Shown here: piece by piece, positions 35,931 to 45,597 of the stretch
How the letters are laid out: each line of letters opens with the position of its first letter
Numbering within the stretch: the stretch's first letter is position 1
Program-made: the position numbers and the translations under genes
Notes under the pieces: model-generated
Databases searched by the model: none
What the model saw: the letters and a program-made list of their open reading frames with translations, nothing else
Told to the model about the DNA's origin: nothing
Source: Cyclobacteriaceae bacterium
GTDB taxonomy: Bacteria > Bacteroidota > Bacteroidia > Cytophagales > Cyclobacteriaceae
Reading direction: 5' to 3'
Assembly (NCBI GenBank): GCA_016787725.1
Contig: JAEUTZ010000003.1
Coordinates: 1-64,000 of the forward strand
DNA length: 64,000 nucleotides

Positions 35931-36848
35931 TTAGAAATTGGATAGAGAACGGTCGTGGAAGTTGAAGGTCGGGATTTCCAGCCCCAGGAATACCTCATGC
36001 GAGGTAAATGAGATACCTACCGAGTTGTTGGTTGGAACTTCAAAGATGTACCCGAATTTTAATTTGTCACCCAGTCGGGCTTGTACCTGCAATCCGTAGG
36101 TGTTGAAGTTGCGCGTAAAAATACCGGCAGCATATTTTTCATTCAAGCTCACATTGAAATTCAAATCCACCGATGCGGGAGAACCACTAACCCCACGCAA
36201 CAGGGCGGAAGGCTTAAACCGGATATGTTCGTTGAGATAGAATACATAAGCACCGAATAGATAGAAGTGCCGGTCATATAACTGGAATTCCTGCCCGCCC
36301 TGATCAAGAACCGTGTTGAGTAAGCGAGGAATGGACAATCCGACCAGATATTTTTCGTTTTTAAGAATAGCACCAGCACCTACATTTGGTCTGGTTACAT
36401 TTGTATTTTGCAAAAATAAATCATCGGTTTTATCAAATGGATTAACATCACCAACATTGTCTTGAAAATTAATGATGCCAGTTTGCATTCCAAAACTTAC
36501 AGTGTTGTTGTCATCCAGCTTTAGTTTATAAGCGAAGGTGGCCTGAACTTCAGTATTCTGCGTATTGCCAATCTTATCCTGAAGAATCAATAATCCAGTC
36601 CCAATCTTATTGTCAAGTAATGAAATGTGACTATTGAAATTGAAGGTGGTAGGGTTCCCGTCAAATCCTCCCCATTGATTTCGGTAGGTGATGGATGCAT
36701 TGAATTTATTGTTTAACCCCGTAAAAGCCGGATTGATGGTCATCGGATTATTGATGTATTGGGCATAGATCGGATCTTGCTGAGCCTGACTCAGATGGAT
36801 ACTGAGGCTAAAGATCAAAGTGAGGAGTAATAATTTTCTCATGCTCAT
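35931..36848 (-). CDS. PorP/SprF-family type IX secretion outer-membrane protein
   Basis: The 305-residue protein has a signal peptide (hydrophobic run ending in QA-Q) followed by the family start QDPIYAQYINNPMTINPAFTG, which defines the PorP/SprF group. The rest is a beta-barrel with alternating strands, ending in GLEIPTF-like segments. In Flavobacterium, SprF is required to deliver SprB, a giant adhesin with a gliding-type C-terminal domain, to the surface. Its ATG overlaps the stop of the upstream giant gene by ATGA, so the pair is translated together and is most likely a matched secretion partner pair. Confidence 0.85.
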   Translation of the reverse strand: MSMRKLLLLTLIFSLSIHLSQAQQDPIYAQYINNPMTINPAFTGLNNKFNASITYRNQWGGFDGNPTTFNFNSHISLLDNKIGTGLLILQDKIGNTQNTEVQATFAYKLKLDDNNTVSFGMQTGIINFQDNVGDVNPFDKTDDLFLQNTNVTRPNVGAGAILKNEKYLVGLSIPRLLNTVLDQGGQEFQLYDRHFYLFGAYVFYLNEHIRFKPSALLRGVSGSPASVDLNFNVSLNEKYAAGIFTRNFNTYGLQVQARLGDKLKFGYIFEVPTNNSVGISFTSHEVFLGLEIPTFNFHDRSLSNF

Positions 36849-39800
36849 CTTTTTAATGTTACGTAACCGGATAAGCCAGGGGCTCCACTGGGAAACTCAA
36901 TTTTGTAAAAATAAACTCCTGAAGGCAGGGGATTTCCGTTTTGATTATTTCCTTCAAACCTCCGGGTATTGTTGTCATAATTATCAGTTTCAAACACCAG
37001 GCTGCCCCACCGGTTGTAAATGCTCACTTTGTTAACGGGCTGTAATACCTGAATATTGGCAATTCTAAAGTACGCATTTTTTAAATCTCCGTTTGGAGAA
37101 AAACCATTATAAACGATGATTTCGCCTTCCACGGTAACGGTAATGAGCCCAAGCGTACAAGCTCCAGAAAGGTCGCATACCTCAATGGTCAGCTGATCCG
37201 TGCCGGCAAAATCTGTGTTGCTGTAATCAATTTGTAAATCGGTACCGGAAATCGAGGCAGGAGCTCCGCTGGTGGGTTGTGCAACAATCTGAAGGGAAGT
37301 AAAATCAAGATCGTTATCCGGATCCGACAAAAATGAGCTTAGGTTAACGGTAACGATACTCCCAATCTGGGTACTTTGGGTGATGGTCGCAATTTGTGGT
37401 GGATTATTGGGGATTACCACCAGCACGGTGGCGTTGAGGGTATTGCTGGAATCAGTACCATCCGTAACCAAAAAAGAAACGACCCGGTTCTGCGAGTTGG
37501 GTGTTGTCGATGTATTAGTATACCGAATGCTCCGGATAGCGGTTTGATAATTGGCGACAGAAGATGCACCGGTTAAGGTAAGCACTCCGGTTGTGGAGGA
37601 ATAAGCCCCTGAAATTCCGTTTTGGTTGGTAAATAAAAGTTGATCTTCGGCCGCCACCAATCCTGTGGAAATTGTTACAGTCGCCCCGGTAAGGTCGGTA
37701 TCATCACTATCACTTACAGTAATCGCTGAGGCGACAATGACCGAAGATGTTGAGAATGTTACATCCGGCAGGGTGCCAGCCAAAACAGGTGCAACATTGG
37801 GTGCTACCGTTACGGCAACATCAACACTTACAAGGTTGCTCAAATCTTCTCCATCCGTAACCATAAAAGATATGGTACGCGATTGTGAATTGGGAGTAGC
37901 CGAGGTGTTATTGTATTGTACCGATTGAATGGCGGTTTGATAATTAGCCAAGGATGAAACTCCGGTTAGCGTTAACACACCCGTGGTGGGATTGTAATTT
38001 CCTGTTATGCCGTTCTGATTCGTAAACAGCAGCTGATCTTCGGTATTAATCAAACCGGCAGTTATTGATATGGTGGCTCCTTCCAAATCGGCATCATCTC
38101 CATCGGACAGGGTAAGAGCCGAACCGACCACAATCGGTGTATTGATATATGTAACAGCCGCTGTTGAACCGGCTATAGCCGGATCCACATTGGGAAATGT
38201 AACGGCTACATCTACCTGGGTAGGCAGGGGAGTGGTTCTGTCCAGATCTCGTACGAGGAATGAAATTGTACGAGTAAGGTTTACTGTTTTTGCTCCAGGG
38301 TTTTTTCTTCCGCCACTGGCCGGTTTTGAGCCCGTGTATTGATAGGCTATTGATTTGATGGCGGAGGTATAAATGGCAATGGTATTTTTACCGCGCAGGG
38401 TAAGTACTCCGGTGGCAGGGTTAAATGTTCCCGTAATTCCGTTTTGGTTGGTGAACAGCAATATCTCTTTGCCGGGCTCATAGTTAATGATGGAAACATT
38501 CACCTCCGAGATCAGATCGTTATCCGGATCATTGATGGCAACTGCCGGATCAAGCAGCACGGCATTGTTTTCAGTAGTTGTAAGGGAGGCTGCAATAACC
38601 GCAACGGGCGGAGGGTTTGTGTTCTCAAAATAATTAAACTGACCCAGCCCATCGCCCGAAAGCAAGTCCAGATCACCATCACCATCCAGATCAATAAATT
38701 CAGGAGCCGGTCTGTTGAAGATGATGTCCTTGAACGGATTATCAAGGCTTCCCCCATTTTTCTCCACAAAAACCGGATTAGCGGTGTTGCCTGTATTTTC
38801 GTAATACCAGACTTCGTTGTATTTTCCTACAATCACATCAAGGTCACCGTCATTGTCTATATCTAAGAATTTCGGACTGGCATTGAAATTCATGCTTGCT
38901 AGGAATCCGGTTTCCCAATCGGTTCTGCGTGTATAGATGGGCTCGGCACTGGTGCCTGTGTTTTTATATAACCTTAGTGGCTGCCCGGTTCTTCCCATCA
39001 CAAAATCTTTAAGGCCATCACCATCCAGGTCGCCAAAGTCAAGACTCACTGCTCCCGCTTCGCTTATGAAATCTAAAGGGTTATTGGTGCCGGTTTGATT
39101 GATCAAAGTCCCGGCTACATTTTTAAAGTAACTCACCTTAAAGGTTGGATCATCGTAGTATGGCGCAATAAGATCAACCAATCCATCCTCGTTTAGATCT
39201 ACCAATTTTGCTTTTGCTTCAGGCGGCAGGTTGACGGTGGTAAAAATGTCTATAGGTTCTCCGGTTATATCCAATAACACCCCGTCCTCAAATTCATATA
39301 AGCTGCTGAATTCTTGGTAAACGTTGTAACAACCATCCGGGCAGAAAGTGTAGGCGATATTTCCGGATGTAAAAACATCCAAGTCCTGATCGCCATCGAT
39401 ATCAATAAAGGAGGCATTAGATGAATTGCCCAAATCAATTCCGTCCACCGGGCTGTTTAGGCCATCGCGCAATGCAAACACCGCATTACCATTGTTTCGG
39501 AAAAACTTAAAGCTGCGCTCGGAATCGTCATAGGCGTAACTATAATAATATGAAAAGCCTGCCACTACGTCTAGGTCCGCATCGTTGTCCAGATCCACCA
39601 ACGAAATAAACACATTGTTTACTACGCCAGGAATCTCAGTATTGACCGCATGAAAAGGATTGCCCAGTTTTGTTACCGGATCCCATGGCCCTTGTTGGTC
39701 CAATCGATCTGCTTCGCTGGCAAAAACACCATTGTCGTTGCGCAGGTAAATTACCTGACTGTAAACGCTTAAGACAACATCTAAATCCCCGTCATTATCC

Positions 39801-40735
39801 AGGTCAATTGTTTGGGCGCTGCACTGATAGCTTGAGTATTGGTTATTGACAGCTGCAAGTAGTGAGTGAGTTGAATTTTTCGTGTAGATTGGGTTACTCT
39901 TTGAGCCCGTGTTCTCGTAATATTGAAGTATATACCCGGCAGTTGAATAACTGTAATAACCACCCAAAAGCAAATCGTAGTCGCCATCTAAATCCAGATC
40001 GGTGAGGGTTGGATGTGCGAATTTTAGGGTTTCGAGAGGATCACCGTTACTATCCCGAAATGGTGTTAAGGCTGCGCTTTGGAGTTCAAAATCAGGAGTT
40101 AAGGCAGAGCCAATATTTTTATAGTAATAAGTTTCTCCCTGGCCATATCCATATTTATAAAAGTCTGCGCCAATAAGTAAGTCCAGATCCCCATCATCAT
40201 CAATATCGGCCAGGGTTGGTGCATAAGACCTTCTGTTACCTGGTATAGAACCGCCTACAATGCCCTCAAATGGAAATCCAGTATCTCCGCTATTAACCTT
40301 AAAGTAAGTAGGCTTTGATGTGGTACCAATATTCTTGAAATACTCGAGGCCATATTGATGGCCTACAATCAGATCATCGTCTCCATCGGCATCCAGATCT
40401 GCATACACAGGAACCGGCCGAGTAAGTTGCGGTAGTGGAGGGGGCAGCGGATTGTCTAAATAATTCCGTACAAAGGGACCGAGGGTAGTTTGGGCTTGTG
40501 CCGGTGTGGCGTTTAAGACTAGACCAAAAACTGCCGAGGCTGCCGCGAGTTTCAATTGGGTATGCAATTGTAAAACCCGGTTCTGCAAACGCTTTACGCG
40601 GGCATAGAGTTGCCGTTGCTTCCTGCGGCTGAACCGGTAAAACTTACCTGAAGCGATGCTACGATCTAACCGAAACTTAAATTTTCGATATTTGGTGGTA
40701 GCTGCCGAGTATATCTGAGCTAACAGCGGATTCAA
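36845..40735 (-). CDS. Giant FG-GAP/cadherin-like surface protein with a gliding-motility C-terminal domain
   Basis: The 1296-residue product has an extended basic N-terminus (residues 1-60, rich in Arg and Lys) before a hydrophobic signal and cleavage site near A81-Q82. Then follow about ten FG-GAP/VCBS-type calcium-binding repeats (pattern DLDxDGDxDLxxG) to about residue 630, three Calx/cadherin-like repeats of about 105 residues, each with LLFTNQNG, and a C-terminal CHU_C gliding-motility domain. The last part includes VYNGFSPNGDLKNAYFRI and SIYNRWGSLVFETDNYDN, typical for proteins exported by type IX secretion. It overlaps the PorP/SprF gene. It is likely a surface adhesin for gliding or attachment. 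Confidence 0.85.
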   Translation of the reverse strand: MNPLLAQIYSAATTKYRKFKFRLDRSIASGKFYRFSRRKQRQLYARVKRLQNRVLQLHTQLKLAAASAVFGLVLNATPAQAQTTLGPFVRNYLDNPLPPPLPQLTRPVPVYADLDADGDDDLIVGHQYGLEYFKNIGTTSKPTYFKVNSGDTGFPFEGIVGGSIPGNRRSYAPTLADIDDDGDLDLLIGADFYKYGYGQGETYYYKNIGSALTPDFELQSAALTPFRDSNGDPLETLKFAHPTLTDLDLDGDYDLLLGGYYSYSTAGYILQYYENTGSKSNPIYTKNSTHSLLAAVNNQYSSYQCSAQTIDLDNDGDLDVVLSVYSQVIYLRNDNGVFASEADRLDQQGPWDPVTKLGNPFHAVNTEIPGVVNNVFISLVDLDNDADLDVVAGFSYYYSYAYDDSERSFKFFRNNGNAVFALRDGLNSPVDGIDLGNSSNASFIDIDGDQDLDVFTSGNIAYTFCPDGCYNVYQEFSSLYEFEDGVLLDITGEPIDIFTTVNLPPEAKAKLVDLNEDGLVDLIAPYYDDPTFKVSYFKNVAGTLINQTGTNNPLDFISEAGAVSLDFGDLDGDGLKDFVMGRTGQPLRLYKNTGTSAEPIYTRRTDWETGFLASMNFNASPKFLDIDNDGDLDVIVGKYNEVWYYENTGNTANPVFVEKNGGSLDNPFKDIIFNRPAPEFIDLDGDGDLDLLSGDGLGQFNYFENTNPPPVAVIAASLTTTENNAVLLDPAVAINDPDNDLISEVNVSIINYEPGKEILLFTNQNGITGTFNPATGVLTLRGKNTIAIYTSAIKSIAYQYTGSKPASGGRKNPGAKTVNLTRTISFLVRDLDRTTPLPTQVDVAVTFPNVDPAIAGSTAAVTYINTPIVVGSALTLSDGDDADLEGATISITAGLINTEDQLLFTNQNGITGNYNPTTGVLTLTGVSSLANYQTAIQSVQYNNTSATPNSQSRTISFMVTDGEDLSNLVSVDVAVTVAPNVAPVLAGTLPDVTFSTSSVIVASAITVSDSDDTDLTGATVTISTGLVAAEDQLLFTNQNGISGAYSSTTGVLTLTGASSVANYQTAIRSIRYTNTSTTPNSQNRVVSFLVTDGTDSSNTLNATVLVVIPNNPPQIATITQSTQIGSIVTVNLSSFLSDPDNDLDFTSLQIVAQPTSGAPASISGTDLQIDYSNTDFAGTDQLTIEVCDLSGACTLGLITVTVEGEIIVYNGFSPNGDLKNAYFRIANIQVLQPVNKVSIYNRWGSLVFETDNYDNNTRRFEGNNQNGNPLPSGVYFYKIEFPSGAPGLSGYVTLKR
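37440..38530 (-). repeat. Three tandem cadherin-like coding repeats
   Basis: Within the giant surface gene the DNA repeats about every 320-360 bases. Each unit encodes DGDD/DNDL-type acidic start, LLFTNQNG, a TTGVLTL segment, NYQTAIxSxxY and SFLVTDG. The last two units are more alike than the first, suggesting recent duplication. Confidence 0.7.
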
Positions 40736-40832: not shown

Positions 40833-41327
40833 ATGAAATCAGTAGCTGATTTTTCATTTGATTGGGTGCCTGATAATCCGCTTTCTGCCGAAGATAATCA
40901 GCAAATTATGCACTTATGGACTGAACGGGCGGGGCTTAAAGTAACAGAAGCAAACCGCAGACAGCAGGAATTGGTATTGATCACCCGGGAGCGCTCGGGA
41001 AAAATTGTCGGACTGGCAACTGTGTATAAAGCCCGGCTGGAGCAAATTCATAACTGGGTGTATTTTTATCGGTGTTTTATTGATCCGGATTTTCGCGCCC
41101 CGGCTTTGGATACGCAAATGTTATATAAAACAAAGATGAAACTGGAGGCAAAAAGTCAAGCGGATACCGAATCAAAATGTGTTGGCGTGGCCATCATTAT
41201 TCAAAACGAGATGATAAAGCACCTTTGGAATCAGGCGGTTTGGCCAGGGACCGAGATGATTTTCATTGGCTGCACCGCAGAGGGTAACCACATTCGCATC
41301 GGGTACTTTAAGAATGCGGTGATCTAA
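40833..41327 (+). CDS. GNAT-like protein, stand-alone paralogue of the GHKL protein's C-terminal domain
   Basis: The 164-residue protein (ATG at 40833; the longer frame opens at TTG) looks like an N-acetyltransferase fold: VLITRERSGKIVGLATV as strands with KIVGL, YFYRCFIDPDFRAPALDTQML as the P-loop-like region, and CVGVAIIIQNEMIKHLWNQAVWPG. It aligns clearly with the C-terminal half of the GHKL protein encoded at 41605-42768, sharing KIVGL, FY-YR-I-P--R-P, and the end pattern HIR-YYFK. The classical acetyl-CoA motif QxxGxG/A is not obvious. It may be an acyltransferase that uses the adjacent carrier protein. Its stop overlaps the carrier gene's stop. Confidence 0.6.
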   Translation: MKSVADFSFDWVPDNPLSAEDNQQIMHLWTERAGLKVTEANRRQQELVLITRERSGKIVGLATVYKARLEQIHNWVYFYRCFIDPDFRAPALDTQMLYKTKMKLEAKSQADTESKCVGVAIIIQNEMIKHLWNQAVWPGTEMIFIGCTAEGNHIRIGYFKNAVI

Positions 41328-41575
41328 GGTTTAAGTTGCTGAGTCAGGTGGGCGGCCATCGATTGAATGGTGGGATAATCCCAAAATAGTAAGGGATTTA
41401 GCTCTTCGCCCACAAAGTGTTCCAGGTGTTGCAAAATGAAAATCGCTTTTACTGAATCGAGCCCGAAGTTTATGAATTCCACCGCAGGATCGATTTCATC
41501 CACACCAATTCCCAACTCTTCCGAAATTTTGAGCTTAAAAAAATTAACCAGTTCGGTTTCAGTAAAATGATTCAT
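41324..41575 (-). CDS. Free-standing acyl/peptidyl carrier protein
   Basis: The 83-residue protein is a carrier-protein domain. The phosphopantetheine attachment site is GLDSVKAIFILQHLE, with the modified serine at S41. The start FTETELVNFFKLKISEELGI and the end WDYPTIQSMAAHL are typical. Carrier proteins hold acyl or aminoacyl groups as thioesters. This one is separate from the fatty-acid synthesis operon and sits among GNAT-like, GHKL and P450 genes, so it probably serves a special pathway. I start at the ATG at 41575; the longer frame reaches 41620 and would overlap the divergent GHKL gene. Convergent with the upstream GNAT-like gene (CTAA shared). Confidence 0.8.
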   Translation of the reverse strand: MNHFTETELVNFFKLKISEELGIGVDEIDPAVEFINFGLDSVKAIFILQHLEHFVGEELNPLLFWDYPTIQSMAAHLTQQLKP

Positions 41576-41604
41576 GAAAATAAATTTGGTGATAACTTTA
41601 ATCC

Positions 41605-42768
41605 ATGCCTGAGGAGTCATTGCAATTTACGGTGAGCGCTTCGCTCTTCAAACAATTGGGTGAACAAATTGCACCAACGCCCTCCCTGGCTCTGCTTGAA
41701 TTAGTCAAGAATGCCTTCGATGCCGATGCCACGAAGATTGAGATCATGATTCAAACCAACAGACTGCCCTTGCGAGCAGACTTACTATTTAAACCGACCG
41801 AAGGCGGGCATATGGTAATAACGGATAATGGGCGAGGAATGAGCAGCCAAGAACTGAATGAGTGGGTTCGGTTCGCACCCTCTGAAAAAAAATCGGGTAG
41901 GAAGCAGCAACCTACCAAGCTTAATCGTAGTGCGGTGGGTGGAAAAGGGCTGGGCAAATTGGCAACTACCCGGTTAGGTCGATGGATTGAGCTAACTAGC
42001 TCCGATGGTAGCACCACAACACAAATAGGTTTTGATTGGCAGGATTTTGATGGTCGTTCTCTTACTGAAGTTCCTATAAAACGCGAACGGAAAGCCGTTG
42101 CGGAAGCACGAGGCACATCCATTATTATCCACCCGATCTATGCGTATGATTGGGACAATCTAACCTTTAAGCAGGATTTCAGGGAGCGCCTTCAACCCTT
42201 TATTAATTCGTCATTTCAGGTAACGCTTTCTGTAAATGGAAGGCAGATTCCATTAAAGCTTACTGCCCCGGTTAAAAGTCGGCCGGTTACGCTTGAACAA
42301 GTATGGCAAAAAATGACGCTTCCCTTGATGGATGAGGTTATCGCCTTTTGGGAAAGCAATCAGATGTTACGGTCCGACTCATCGCTGCAGGAACGTGCAC
42401 GACAAGTGGTTTTTCTGATTCGCGATGGGGTTACGCAAAAAATAGTTGGATTATCTACCGCTGGCCTTGTAAACTTTAAACAGCTTAATAACAATACGTT
42501 TTATCTCTATCGTTCTATCATCCTTCCTGAGTATCGTCATCCTGGCCTGGCCGATAAATTGACTATTGAGACCCGTAATTGCCTCGAGAACTTTAACCGA
42601 ACAGTGGGTGAAAATAAAGCGATCGGTATTCTGGTGTTTGTGGAAAATCTGAAACTCCAGCAATTTAGACGCGAAGCAATTTGGCGCTCTTCGCGCATGG
42701 CCTACATTGGCATGGATAAATCTGGGCGCCACATACGGGTGTATTATTTTAAGGGGGCGCGCATTTAG
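41605..42768 (+). CDS. GHKL-type ATPase fused to a GNAT-like domain
   Basis: The 387-residue protein has an N-terminal Bergerat-fold ATPase (HSP90/MutL/histidine-kinase type). The N-box is LELVKNAFDADA (E32, N36, D39), the G1 box is ITDNGRGMS (D74-G78), and the G2 box is VGGKGLGKLAT (G112-G117). These are complete, so ATP binding and turnover are likely. From about residue 230 the sequence matches the stand-alone GNAT-like protein encoded at 40833-41327. No histidine kinase phosphoacceptor or response regulator is seen. It is 29 bases from the divergent carrier protein start, and its stop overlaps the P450 stop. This fusion is unusual, and I cannot name a known family for the whole protein. 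Confidence 0.7.
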   Translation: MPEESLQFTVSASLFKQLGEQIAPTPSLALLELVKNAFDADATKIEIMIQTNRLPLRADLLFKPTEGGHMVITDNGRGMSSQELNEWVRFAPSEKKSGRKQQPTKLNRSAVGGKGLGKLATTRLGRWIELTSSDGSTTTQIGFDWQDFDGRSLTEVPIKRERKAVAEARGTSIIIHPIYAYDWDNLTFKQDFRERLQPFINSSFQVTLSVNGRQIPLKLTAPVKSRPVTLEQVWQKMTLPLMDEVIAFWESNQMLRSDSSLQERARQVVFLIRDGVTQKIVGLSTAGLVNFKQLNNNTFYLYRSIILPEYRHPGLADKLTIETRNCLENFNRTVGENKAIGILVFVENLKLQQFRREAIWRSSRMAYIGMDKSGRHIRVYYFKGARI

Positions 42769-43940
42769 TCTGCCCGAACAGGAAAGGTGCTCAAACTTCG
42801 GATAGATAAATGCCGGGTCCATTTCACTTGACCATTGGGCTTCAGGTTAGGGTAGGTGTTAAGCAGTTCTTCCAACGCTATTTTTCCCTGCAACCGGGCC
42901 AACCAATCGCCCATACAAAAATGGATACCCGATCCAAAAGCCATATGGCGGTTATGATTGCGTAACAAGTTGAGTTGATTGGGGCTTTCAAAAATTTCCG
43001 GATCACGATTAGCTGCCCCCAGGCATAAGGTGACGGTACTGTTTTTGGAAATGAGTTGACCCCCCACTTCAACATCTTCCTGCGCGATACGCCCCAGCAA
43101 TTGCACGGGCGATTCGTACCGAAGCAACTCATCAATGGCAGCATCCCAGTTGGTGATCGGGCTGTTGCCTGCATGGTGAAGCAAATTGCGTGTACCCGTT
43201 CCGATTAAACTACTGGTTGTTTCTTCACCTGCCGTAAATAAAAAGATACAAAGCGAGATCAATTCATTTTCAGACAACAGGTCAGGCGTATTTTCACTGG
43301 ACTGAATAATCTTTTTTAGCAATCCTGACTCGGCCATGTTATTTTCTCGAATAATTGTCCGGAAGTATTCGATAAACTTAACCGAAGCTGAGTGAATGGT
43401 AACCAAATCTTTGATCGTAATATACAGATCTAATCCCTTTATCAGTTGTAAGGCAAGATTTTTCAAGTAGTGGTAATCATTGGGACTGATTCCCAAAATC
43501 CTTGACATGGTTAGCGCGGGCAACACCTGTGCAATATCTTTCACTACATCAAATTGTTTAGGGAGCCGGCTCAGGATTTCCCGGGCATTCATCCGAATTT
43601 GCGGCTCAATCTCCCGTTCAGTCCAAACTGCATGCATGAATTTACGGATGCGTGTATGTTGAGGTGGATTGAGGAAAAGCATGAATCCGCACATCGCTTG
43701 TGCAATAGCGTGAAAGTCGAGTTCGTGGTTGTGAAGGTGCGCAATGCCTCGTTTGATCCACTCCAGTCGGTTGCCTGTAATAAAGCGGTTGTCTTTTAAG
43801 ACATCACGTACATGTTCATATCGGGTAATTATCCACTCACCGGTTTGAGATCGATGCACCGGATCTTCCGTACGCAGCCGGGCATACATCTCATACGGAT
43901 CATTAAAGTGAGCGGCATCCCAAGGACTCCACAATTTCAT
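42765..43940 (-). CDS. Cytochrome P450
   Basis: The 391-residue protein is a bacterial class I P450. The haem ligand motif AFGSGIHFCMG places the cysteine at C352, the oxygen-activating I-helix has AGEETTSS (about residues 237-244), and the ExxR motif is ELLR (271-274). It needs a separate ferredoxin, which is not in the window. Bacterial P450s next to carrier proteins often hydroxylate a carrier-bound substrate, as in some antibiotic pathways. The start at 43940 makes an exact ATGA overlap with the stop of the upstream TIGR03032 gene, so both are one transcript; a longer frame reaches 43967. Its stop is shared with the GHKL gene. Confidence 0.9.
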   Translation of the reverse strand: MKLWSPWDAAHFNDPYEMYARLRTEDPVHRSQTGEWIITRYEHVRDVLKDNRFITGNRLEWIKRGIAHLHNHELDFHAIAQAMCGFMLFLNPPQHTRIRKFMHAVWTEREIEPQIRMNAREILSRLPKQFDVVKDIAQVLPALTMSRILGISPNDYHYLKNLALQLIKGLDLYITIKDLVTIHSASVKFIEYFRTIIRENNMAESGLLKKIIQSSENTPDLLSENELISLCIFLFTAGEETTSSLIGTGTRNLLHHAGNSPITNWDAAIDELLRYESPVQLLGRIAQEDVEVGGQLISKNSTVTLCLGAANRDPEIFESPNQLNLLRNHNRHMAFGSGIHFCMGDWLARLQGKIALEELLNTYPNLKPNGQVKWTRHLSIRSLSTFPVRAD

Positions 43941-45013
43941 TTCGCTTCGGGTTGTGGCTGAGCCCAATAACTACCGCTTGGCGTGGTAATCGCAGTTTGA
44001 TGATCTTCGCCATAATGATTGAGTATCCCCGGCCTGCGGGTTCCGGCAATTGCACGGACATCGTAAATTTCTTCCACGCTGTTTTCATATTGGATGTGGC
44101 CAACTAACCGGCCGGTGGAAAGTTGGACCACGGCAATTCCGCAAAACACAGATTCTTTGGCAATGGGCAGATCACCAAACGCTTTACTGGTGGTACGCAG
44201 TTTTGATAATCCGATAAAGAGGAAGTCGCCAAGTTTATCCAAGCCTCGCACAAAGCCATTTAGTCGCTGCACCACGTCATAGGTTTGGGTGGCCAGGTTT
44301 ACTTTAATCAATTCCCCGGTTCCAGATAGCAGCACGAATAACTGACCCTCATAGATCCGGGGTGAATGGGGCATCGGCAATTTTTTCAATATAAATTCCT
44401 GCGAATGCACATCCAGTAATACTCCGCCCGCGGCCTTGTTTTCGCGCCAGCCTCCGGGCTCATTGCTTGTGCCTAATGCGGTAACATATTTTAATTCATG
44501 TTGATCAAGCGCCATTCCATTCAAATGGCATTGGTCGCGCGGGTCAAGCTCGGTAATGAACTTGGGTTTCCAGATGGGAGTGAAACTGAAATTGGAGTCA
44601 ATTTTTGAAATGCATGAGAATCGTGTGGTTACGGCAATAAGCCCCTTTGGGGTAAACGCCAGATCGTGAATATCCAACTCACCCGTAAAGTATACTGACC
44701 TTGGCAGAAAGAGTGCATCGTAGGTATTGGGTTGCTTTGCTAAGGTGGGGGCAAGGGCGGTATTATTGGCTAGCACAACCACTTCATGTCGGGTGGCAAT
44801 CGCCATTCGCTCACCCTCGATGGCAATGCCCATGGCCTTCTTAAATGTTCGCGGCAATTGAATTAATCCATTTCGATCTTTAGCGCTGATAAAGATTACC
44901 TTGCCAGCCTGGTACGTGCTGATTACCAGCGTGCATCGAAGTGAGAAAAGTAAGTCAGGAATTCCTTCAGTAAAACGGCAGGCAAAGGGTGCCCGCTCTT
45001 CCTTTATATCCAT
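43937..45013 (-). CDS. TIGR03032-type protein of unknown function
   Basis: The protein is about 358 residues, without a signal peptide. It carries the family hallmarks that I associate with TIGR03032/DUF4915: LVISTYQAGKVIFISA near the start, a central HDLAFTPKGLIAVTTRFSC and DPRDQCHLNGMALDQ, and the YVTALG...GGWRENKAAGG segment. The repeat-like strand pattern suggests a beta-propeller. The function is unknown; relatives occur in varied bacteria, often beside biosynthetic or modification genes. The ATG at 45013 is preferred over 45040. It is the first gene of a two-gene operon with P450, and starts 44 bases from the divergent cysC. Confidence 0.7.
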   Translation of the reverse strand: MDIKEERAPFACRFTEGIPDLLFSLRCTLVISTYQAGKVIFISAKDRNGLIQLPRTFKKAMGIAIEGERMAIATRHEVVVLANNTALAPTLAKQPNTYDALFLPRSVYFTGELDIHDLAFTPKGLIAVTTRFSCISKIDSNFSFTPIWKPKFITELDPRDQCHLNGMALDQHELKYVTALGTSNEPGGWRENKAAGGVLLDVHSQEFILKKLPMPHSPRIYEGQLFVLLSGTGELIKVNLATQTYDVVQRLNGFVRGLDKLGDFLFIGLSKLRTTSKAFGDLPIAKESVFCGIAVVQLSTGRLVGHIQYENSVEEIYDVRAIAGTRRPGILNHYGEDHQTAITTPSGSYWAQPQPEAK

Positions 45014-45057
45014 GATTAAACTTATGATTTTTTTTCTCATTTTAAAGGTTTGTATTT

Positions 45058-45597
45058 ATGAAGGCACCGTCTCAACATAATTTTGTGGTCTGGTTCACCG
45101 GTTTATCGGGTGCAGGAAAAACCACGTTGGCACAGGAGCTTAAGAAGCAGCTTGACCTCGATGGGAGTAACGTGTATGTATTGGACGGAGATGTGTTACG
45201 CGGTGGACTGAACTTGGACCTTGGATTTTCTGCTTCTGACCGGAGTGAAAATATCAGACGGGCCGCTGAAGTAGCAAAATTATGGGTAGACGAAGGCTTT
45301 TGTGTACTGGCGACATTCATATCACCGTTTCAGGCAGATCGGCAAAAAGCCCGCGATATCATTGGTGCACACCGGTTTAAGGAGGTTTACATTCGTTGTC
45401 CATTAGAGATTTGTGAAACCCGTGATGTGAAAGGTCTTTATGAAAAAGCACGGGCTGGTTTGATTCGAAATTTTACAGGGATCGACTCTCCCTATGAGCC
45501 TCCAATTCAAGCTGATGTAATTATTTCATCCGATAAGCAAAGCATAAACGAATCGGTGAACCACCTTTTAAAATCATTGTTCTATACAGAGCGTTAA
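45058..45597 (+). CDS. cysC: Adenylylsulfate (APS) kinase
   Basis: The 179-residue protein is a standalone APS kinase that makes PAPS, the sulfate donor. The Walker A loop is GLSGAGKTT (15-23), DGDVLRGGLNLDLGF is the APS-binding region, and RNFTGIDSPYEPP the C-terminal motif. No sulfate adenylyltransferase or PAPS reductase is in the window, so the PAPS may serve sulfation as well as assimilation. It is divergent from the TIGR03032 gene by 44 bases. An Na+/H+ antiporter gene begins 3 bases after it, suggesting cotranscription. Confidence 0.9.
   Translation: MKAPSQHNFVVWFTGLSGAGKTTLAQELKKQLDLDGSNVYVLDGDVLRGGLNLDLGFSASDRSENIRRAAEVAKLWVDEGFCVLATFISPFQADRQKARDIIGAHRFKEVYIRCPLEICETRDVKGLYEKARAGLIRNFTGIDSPYEPPIQADVIISSDKQSINESVNHLLKSLFYTER

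What the first reader, a model, noticed from the sequence alone, without database searches (positions are those of the whole stretch)
40833..45597. Unusual cluster: carrier protein, two GNAT-like copies, GHKL ATPase, P450, TIGR03032 protein and APS kinase
Five of six genes around 40.8-45.6 kb are uncommon partners: a lone acyl/peptidyl carrier protein (S41), two related GNAT-like domains, a complete GHKL ATPase, a P450 with an ATGA-coupled TIGR03032 gene, and cysC. Seen: motifs and overlaps. Known: carrier-bound substrates can be hydroxylated by P450s, and CysC makes PAPS for sulfation. Inference: a small-molecule or surface modification route in which an acyl or aminoacyl group is loaded on the carrier, oxidised and transferred by a GNAT-like enzyme. 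No adenylation, ketosynthase, 4'-phosphopantetheinyl transferase or sulfotransferase gene is in the window.
Basis: partly seen in the sequence, partly recalled or inferred. Interest (0 to 1): 0.75.

Follow-up and report, generated by a model that had tools for sequence, protein, structure and literature searches.

The report
Carrier-P450-GNAT module for leader-bearing surface proteins
A conserved bacterial gene set (carrier protein, P450, acyltransferase-like proteins and a propeller protein of unknown function) sits beside the gene of a giant secreted protein with a shared N-terminal leader, which suggests that the giant protein is chemically modified inside the cell before it is exported.

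Summary
The genes are real and correctly placed. PCP, P450 and GNAT stand together in 15 of 80 public TIGR03032 loci, and in the window; none of the 80 has this PCP or GNAT without the P450. The two GNAT copies fit an old unit duplication. cysC and the GHKL domain are not core. That leader tracks TIGR03032: of 58 genomes, 10 have each and 9 both. Around TIGR03032 elsewhere the accompanying enzymes change (TPR-GT41, double GNAT, PCP-P450-GNAT) while a leader protein usually stays. Best reading (inferred, ~50%): cytosolic, pre-export modification of the leader protein; a carrier-bound acyl or aminoacyl group is oxidised by the P450 and transferred by the GNAT. It works like HMW1C/HMW1 or HlyC/HlyA but belongs to neither. 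No chemistry is shown. Sulfation is unsupported: no PF13469 sulfotransferase in the genome.

The parts
36845..40735 (-). 1296-aa secreted FG-GAP protein with type B T9SS C-terminal domain (TTG start); proposed client of the system
   Evidence: FG-GAP_3 98.3 bits, CHU_C 76.6 bits; TIGR04131 44.5 bits, cut-off 35; homologues beside the cassette in the five other same-genus loci
40550..40735 (-). 62-aa basic pre-signal leader (residues 1-62)
   Evidence: aligned with 25 other leaders (A2); E=2.9e-23 in the whole-genome search, the window being itself a row of the model
40493..40549 (-). hydrophobic signal-peptide stretch with AQA|Q-like cleavage site (residues 63-81)
   Evidence: read from sequence
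40472..40480 (-). GPF motif near the predicted mature N-terminus
   Evidence: 18 of 18 cassette-linked against 1 of 26 other leader proteins found by the leader model; motif chosen after seeing the sequences
35931..36848 (-). PorP/SprF-family T9SS partner, overlaps the leader gene by 4 nt
   Evidence: TIGR03519 232.9 bits, cut-off 90.55
40833..41327 (+). GNAT-like protein a (164 aa)
   Evidence: AF2 pLDDT 93.8; Foldseek GNAT hits E about 1e-5; a-type set in the tree
41324..41575 (-). stand-alone carrier protein, Ser41
   Evidence: PF00550 E=5.4e-13; carrier Ser in 20 of 20 aligned sequences, window included; groups with L074, L075 p2, L090 p2, L120 p2 (90/86)
41605..42768 (+). GHKL ATPase domain fused to GNAT-like domain b (about residues 225-387)
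   Evidence: PF13589 70.5 bits; full-length relative in 1 other of 58 genomes, G030, 48%
42765..43940 (-). cytochrome P450 with AGEETT and FGSGIHFCMG motifs
   Evidence: PF00067 E=2.5e-26; motifs
43937..45013 (-). TIGR03032/DUF4915 protein, predicted beta-propeller, no signal peptide seen by eye
   Evidence: 366.9 bits; AF2 pLDDT 96.1; Foldseek propellers
45058..45597 (+). APS kinase (CysC); neighbour, not core
   Evidence: TIGR00455 232.6 bits; only match in the genome at E<=1e-20

Best explanation
The locus is a dedicated pre-export modification system for a giant leader-bearing T9SS surface protein. Inferred steps: (1) the 62-aa leader marks the FG-GAP protein in the cytosol; (2) the TIGR03032 propeller binds the leader or client, or acts on it, and is the constant core; (3) the stand-alone PCP carries an acyl or aminoacyl group, loaded by a ligase that is not in the cassette (a FAAL next to PCP-P450 in one relative suggests an acyl group); (4) the P450 oxidises the carrier-bound group; (5) a GNAT-like protein transfers it to the client; (6) the leader is removed with the signal peptide, and the T9SS with its PorP/SprF partner exports the protein. 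Shown here: gene content, synteny, co-occurrence, predicted folds, and intact carrier-serine and heme-cysteine motifs in the window. Not shown: any binding, loading, oxidation or transfer.
For: Same cassette in six same-genus genomes (window included), each time beside FG-GAP/T9SS proteins. 15 of 80 TIGR03032 loci hold PCP, P450 and GNAT together, 0 of 80 this PCP or GNAT without the P450. Leader and TIGR03032: 10 genomes each of 58, 9 shared, Fisher p=9e-9; in the 52 genomes that gave no row to the leader model 4, 4 and 3 shared, p=7e-4. 65 of 96 distinct TIGR03032 loci have a leader protein within 6.5 kb by model or rule, 44 within 400 nt. Other enzymes beside TIGR03032: TPR-GT41, GNAT proteins adjacent (L191) or fused (L062). 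GPF motif and type B CTD go with the cassette. Precedents: HMW1 with signal peptide 1-68 and cytosolic GT41 HMW1C (PMC3012730, passages); HlyC with acyl-ACP donor, GNAT-like ApxIC (PMC8339906, passages); P450 Qui15 acts on PCP-loaded Trp only (PMC3578932, abstract).
Against: 31 of 96 TIGR03032 loci show no leader protein by my test; 13 of these are cut off within 2 kb on the 3' side, the rest are not; five have small lipoproteins next door instead (L180, L181, L184, L187, L189). Of the 11 loci with a TPR-GT41/TPR model hit, 4 show no leader protein (L083, L084, L092, L121). G055 has TIGR03032 without a leader-model hit, G019 the leader without TIGR03032 (its contig starts inside a GNAT gene), G258 a leader without TIGR03032. 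A second TIGR03032 of G017 (L063) sits beside a T9SS protein that the leader model does not hit. Cassette-linked leader proteins look like one related family, so co-inheritance without modification is possible. No ligase is in the cassette. GNAT Foldseek hits are generic, none of the top 50 an acyl-ACP user that I recognise; the 24 aligned GNATs have no invariant His. Propeller matches are generic.
Confidence: 0.5

Rival explanations
1. Small-molecule route: a PCP-bound acyl or aminoacyl group is hydroxylated by the P450 and released by the GNAT onto an amino acid or amine (N-acyl amino acid type); the surface-protein genes are only neighbours.
For: PCP, P450 and GNAT are a tight unit; a FAAL-PCP-P450 trio stands about 20 kb from the cassette in G017.
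Against: In the 58 relatives all GNAT-domain hits of the P0003 search (E<=1e-5; 7 genomes) lie at this locus beside the T9SS gene, G019 at a contig end; TIGR03032 mostly keeps leader-bearing partners where PCP-P450-GNAT is absent; an AMP-ligase motif was found in none of the TIGR03032 loci scanned, only in L064 (and the overlapping L047, L057), L070 and the own genome's L157/L158 (ketosynthases were not scanned for).
Confidence: 0.25
2. TIGR03032 and the leader form an export-targeting or chaperone pair (delayed Sec export of giant proteins, as I recall being proposed for extended signal peptides of autotransporters); the enzymes modify something else, e.g. a lipid or LPS anchor.
For: The leader is a pre-signal extension; many TIGR03032 loci show none of the enzyme genes modelled here; propellers often bind proteins (general knowledge).
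Against: Does not explain GT41, GNAT and PCP-P450-GNAT genes recurring in the same place.
Confidence: 0.15
3. Sulfation route fed by CysC (PAPS) acting on a carrier-bound or surface substrate.
For: CysC near TIGR03032 in the window and in L074, L075, L147 and L187; distant TIGR03032 relatives in L193, L194 and L199 lie beside a gene that looks like a sulfotransferase (my reading, not searched).
Against: No PF13469 hit in the own genome (other sulfotransferase families not searched); no cysC in the stretches around the cassette in G017, G026, G028.
Confidence: 0.05

Closest known systems
HMW1A/HMW1C (two-partner secretion adhesin with cytosolic GT41 glycosyltransferase)
   Same: Large surface protein with a 68-residue signal peptide, modified in the cytosol by an accessory enzyme before outer-membrane export (PMC3012730 passages); sister TIGR03032 loci carry TPR-GT41 genes
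   Different: T9SS, not two-partner secretion; no GT41 hit among the seven window proteins scanned; PCP-P450-GNAT instead; a TIGR03032 protein, which I recall from no HMW system
HlyC/RtxC toxin-activating acyltransferases
   Same: GNAT-like fold, carrier-protein donor (inferred here), exported repeat-rich client (PMC8339906 passages)
   Different: No invariant catalytic His in the 24 GNATs; dedicated PCP and P450; T9SS instead of T1SS; no RtxC hit among the Pfam or NCBIfam matches listed
PCP-dependent P450 hydroxylases of NRPS pathways (e.g. Qui15)
   Same: P450 paired with a carrier protein (PMC3578932, abstract)
   Different: No A domain among the cassette proteins; stand-alone carrier
Type B CTD T9SS cargo with PorP/SprF partner
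   Same: CTD type and adjacent PorP/SprF gene; PMC9143113 seen as search listing only
   Different: Long basic leader before the signal peptide

Membership tests
TIGR03032/DUF4915 | score above curated cut-off | tested here: met
   366.9 against 251.5 bits; PF16261 380.9 against 35 bits
Type B T9SS cargo | type B C-terminal sorting domain | tested here: met
   TIGR04131 44.5 against 35 bits
Type B T9SS cargo | PorP/SprF partner encoded next door | tested here: met
   TIGR03519 232.9 against 90.55 bits
HlyC/RtxC acyltransferase | conserved catalytic His | tested here: not met
   no invariant His in A4, 24 sequences
HlyC/RtxC acyltransferase | GNAT-like fold | tested here: met
   generic GNAT fold
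HlyC/RtxC acyltransferase | acyl-ACP donor and lysine acceptor | not testable with these tools
   needs biochemistry
HMW1C-type pre-export glycosylation | GT41 enzyme at the locus | tested here: not met
   no GT41 among the matches listed for the seven window proteins scanned; present in sister TIGR03032 loci
NRPS/PKS gene cluster | adenylation or ketosynthase domain at the locus | tested here: not met
   none among the six cassette proteins and the leader protein; the PCP matches PKS/NRPS models over its carrier domain only; rest of the window not scanned
Carrier protein | phosphopantetheine serine | tested here: met
   GLDS in the window; Ser in 20 of 20 aligned sequences
Cytochrome P450 | heme-thiolate motif | tested here: met
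   window FGSGIHFCMG; 17 of 18 aligned sequences, L120 second copy lacks it; I-helix motif in 15 of 18
APS kinase | TIGR00455 score | tested here: met
   232.6 against 138.7 bits

The most novel reading that the evidence does not exclude
TIGR03032 is the core of a widespread, undescribed client-tagging system: a basic pre-signal leader on giant exported proteins recruits a cytosolic propeller protein, which presents the client to interchangeable modification modules (PCP-P450-GNAT, TPR-GT41, double GNAT). In the window the module installs a P450-oxidised acyl or aminoacyl group from a dedicated carrier protein on a T9SS surface protein, a post-translational modification that I know no counterpart of.
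Probability: 0.33. Interest if true: 0.9.

Novelty: new variant of a known kind. Interest (0 to 1): 0.72.

Why it matters
No paper in the library searched holds the words 'TIGR03032' or 'DUF4915' (0 papers each of 5.39 million, open-licence papers only). A leader that predicts its client, and swappable enzyme genes beside it, would turn an orphan family into a testable protein-modification system, show a way to put carrier-built chemical groups on surface proteins, and give a sequence tag for finding new clients in Bacteroidota and in some MAGs labelled as other phyla.

Tried and rejected
Rejected: sulfation as the main function; GHKL as core (full fusion in the window and G030 only, of 58 genomes; L075/G027 seems to keep an N-terminal remnant, read by eye, where the automatic alignment placed only the first four residues there); PCP as the fatty-acid AcpP. 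A GNAT of the LuxI/FeeM kind was looked for by fold only: none recognised in the top 50, left open.

Led nowhere: the genome-contig scan with the GHKL protein found no relative. Distance tests of signal-peptide position among T9SS proteins in the fetched loci were weak, because the loci are short and the leader gene is often pushed away by the P450 and PCP genes (hydrophobic stretch at residue 35 or later in 28 of 43 T9SS proteins within 400 nt of TIGR03032 and 21 of 55 further off, p=0.014; leader in 65 of 106 within 5 kb, 2 of 7 further out, p=0.12). My first GPF count (10 of 18 against 0 of 26) misplaced the cleavage site; after reading the sequences I recounted from the leader end (18 of 18 against 1 of 26). 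The motif was chosen after seeing the sequences, so its p value is descriptive only. The AMP-ligase of G017 has as best hit in the own genome (29%) a 558-aa ORF beside suf-like ORFs that looks like a housekeeping long-chain acyl-CoA ligase (names from recall).

Left out of counts: four loci with TIGR03032 matches under the family cut-off (L193, L194, L195, L199; no leader protein seen by eye) and a second place in G128 with stops (not fetched) are not in the 96 loci; L059-L064 and the window are not in it either.
Full report
What is there. The GHKL ATPase and the second GNAT-like domain are one ORF. The set is arranged PorP/SprF < leader protein < | GNAT-a > < PCP | GHKL-GNAT-b > < P450 < TIGR03032 | cysC >, with 4-nt overlaps at GNAT-a/PCP, GNAT-b/P450 and P450/TIGR03032.

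Conservation. The window lies in a 4.21-Mb genome. In 58 genomes (own, same genus, same order) TIGR03032 is found in 10 (E<=1e-5), the P450 in 7 (E<=1e-40; one of them, G045, a distant 33% match), the PCP in 8 (E<=1e-4; two of them, G031 and G052, weaker matches elsewhere), and the full GHKL-GNAT ORF in 2 (own and G030). G000, G017, G026, G027, G028 and G030 share the locus, next to homologues of window 36845-40735; PorP/SprF and the queD-like, sigma-factor-like and 825-aa ORFs (names from recall) follow in the same order, for G017 in the neighbouring stretch L064. In the public genome collection 264 places encode a TIGR03032 relative; the best 80 were kept. Of these 80, 15 have PCP, 17 a P450 and 15 the GNAT within 6.5 kb; 15 have all three; the two P450 loci without PCP (L097, L131) have a P450 with lower scores (290-294 bits against 469-595 for the others) on short contigs. 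Five of the 15 have the contig lengths of G017, G026, G027, G028 and G030 and are taken as the same records; two others (L085, L094) come from one MAG; so ten loci in nine genomes are new.

Unit duplication. L120 has two [PCP-P450-GNAT] units in a row. The tree puts the GNATs into an a-type and a b-type set (93/92, below the 95/80 mark), with the window holding one of each, and places the window PCP with L074, L075 p2, L090 p2 and L120 p2 (90/86). The simplest history is duplication of the unit followed by loss of the second P450 (in L120 the second P450 lacks the heme-cysteine motif) and, in the window and L074, of the first PCP. The PCP tree is weakly resolved, so this is a reading, not a proof.

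The leader. The 1296-aa FG-GAP protein beside GNAT-a starts with a 62-aa basic stretch before its hydrophobic signal peptide. Many relatives beside TIGR03032 do the same. A model of 26 leaders without signal peptide (A2) was searched in the 58 genomes: 14 hits in 10 genomes, 12 of the 14 within about 10 kb of a TIGR03032 gene (one search read). Nine genomes have both; G055 has only TIGR03032 (a TIGR03032-GNAT fusion, 615 nt from a T9SS protein with a shorter N-terminal extension) and G019 only the leader (its contig begins inside a GNAT gene). Fisher p=9e-9 over 58; six of the ten leader genomes gave rows to the model, and without them it is 4, 4 and 3 shared, of 52, p=7e-4. The genomes are related, so these values overstate independence. 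In 395 genomes of the class the model hits 6: four with TIGR03032 (own, G080, G093, G376; in G080 and G093 the leader gene is next to TIGR03032, in G376 121 kb away), one without (G258), and one (G348) in a frame with stops that I take as chance although the genome has TIGR03032. TIGR03032 itself hits 23 of the 395 (19 over the cut-off), so this narrow model misses most partners outside the order (at most 15 candidates a genome were scored).

A looser rule (hydrophobic stretch at residue 30 or later, net charge +5 or more before it, T9SS domain or FG-GAP motif) or the leader model finds a leader protein within 6.5 kb in 65 of 96 distinct TIGR03032 loci, 37 by the model, 44 within 400 nt. Of the 31 misses 13 are cut off within 2 kb on the 3' side; the others are real misses by this test, among them five with small lipoproteins. 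The rule is heuristic and was set after seeing examples.

Other enzymes beside TIGR03032. TPR-GT41 proteins (PF13844 in the four checked; my TPR-GT41 model hits 11 of 80 loci, some probably by TPR alone; 7 of the 11 also show a leader protein) and GNAT proteins (L191 adjacent, two GNAT stretches; L062 fused, one stretch by Pfam and a second by eye; possibly L087) occur in place of, or together with, PCP-P450-GNAT (L094 has PCP, P450, GNAT and TPR-GT41). Among leader proteins found by the model, the cassette-linked ones have a GPF motif near the mature N-terminus (18 of 18 proteins, 15 loci with the window), the others do not except L076 (1 of 26 proteins, 23 loci). By my two CTD models, built partly from these proteins, 15 of 15 typed cassette-linked ones are type B (the window too, by TIGR04131) and 21 of 21 typed others type A (the window was set as type B in that script). 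This may be co-inheritance of one protein family.

Folds. TIGR03032 is predicted as a beta-propeller (pLDDT 96.1) with many invariant polar residues; Foldseek gives generic propellers and sequence search nothing convincing (best E=1.2). The GNAT-a model is a generic GNAT (sequence search best E=0.015). Neither tells the reaction.

Interpretation. The constant pair is TIGR03032 plus an exported protein, mostly with a leader; the enzymes vary. The nearest described logic is cytosolic modification before export, as in HMW1/HMW1C (PMC3012730, passages) and HlyA/HlyC (PMC8339906, passages); P450s that act only on a carrier-bound substrate are known (PMC3578932, abstract). Two T9SS papers looked at by term (PMC10202324 and PMC12618676, passages) speak of a Sec signal peptide and, the first, of periplasmic glycosylation of cargo; the passages shown mention no pre-signal leader. 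Papers with 'TIGR03032' or 'DUF4915': none. One search (T9SS with extended signal peptides) listed 15 of 42 papers, none on point by title and start of abstract; two searches returned none. The chemistry in the window (acyl or aminoacyl, oxidised, transferred to protein) is inference. I put the protein-modification reading at 0.5, a small-molecule route at 0.25, an export-targeting pair at 0.15 and sulfation at 0.05.

CysC. It is the only match in the genome at E<=1e-20 and lies near TIGR03032 in the window, L074, L075, L147 and L187, but not in the stretches fetched from G017, G026 or G028. No PF13469 sulfotransferase is in the genome. I treat it as a neighbour with an unexplained, weak recurrence.

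Noticed in passing
L180, L181, L184, L187, L189: A second TIGR03032 context: small lipoprotein-like ORFs, most sharing a 'KYEEGP..RLxGEWE'-like stretch, stand directly beside TIGR03032, with no leader protein seen.
   Followed up: no
L187:5388-5903 and L147: APS kinase genes close to TIGR03032 in genomes other than the window's close relatives; recurrence unexplained.
   Followed up: partly
window 41605-42270: GHKL ATPase domain matching BbrUII-type restriction enzyme and sacsin N-terminal models, fused to a GNAT-like domain; in L075 (G027) only an N-terminal remnant seems left.
   Followed up: partly
L064:6737-9824 (G017): Fatty-acyl-AMP ligase, PCP and P450 genes in a row about 20 kb from the TIGR03032 cassette.
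   Followed up: partly
L120:3455-4639: Second P450 of a tandem unit lacks the heme-cysteine motif; a degenerate or non-catalytic P450.
   Followed up: no
L193, L194, L199 (G140, G262, G381): Distant TIGR03032 relatives, below the family cut-off, in surface-polysaccharide-like clusters beside a 313-315-aa sulfotransferase-like ORF (reading by eye).
   Followed up: no
L098 and L107: TIGR03032 loci with leader-like secreted proteins in MAGs labelled Poribacteria (leader model hit) and Anaerolineales (by eye only), outside Bacteroidota.
   Followed up: no
L197 (G258): Leader-bearing gene in a genome without a TIGR03032 match; G376 of the same genus has both, 121 kb apart.
   Followed up: partly
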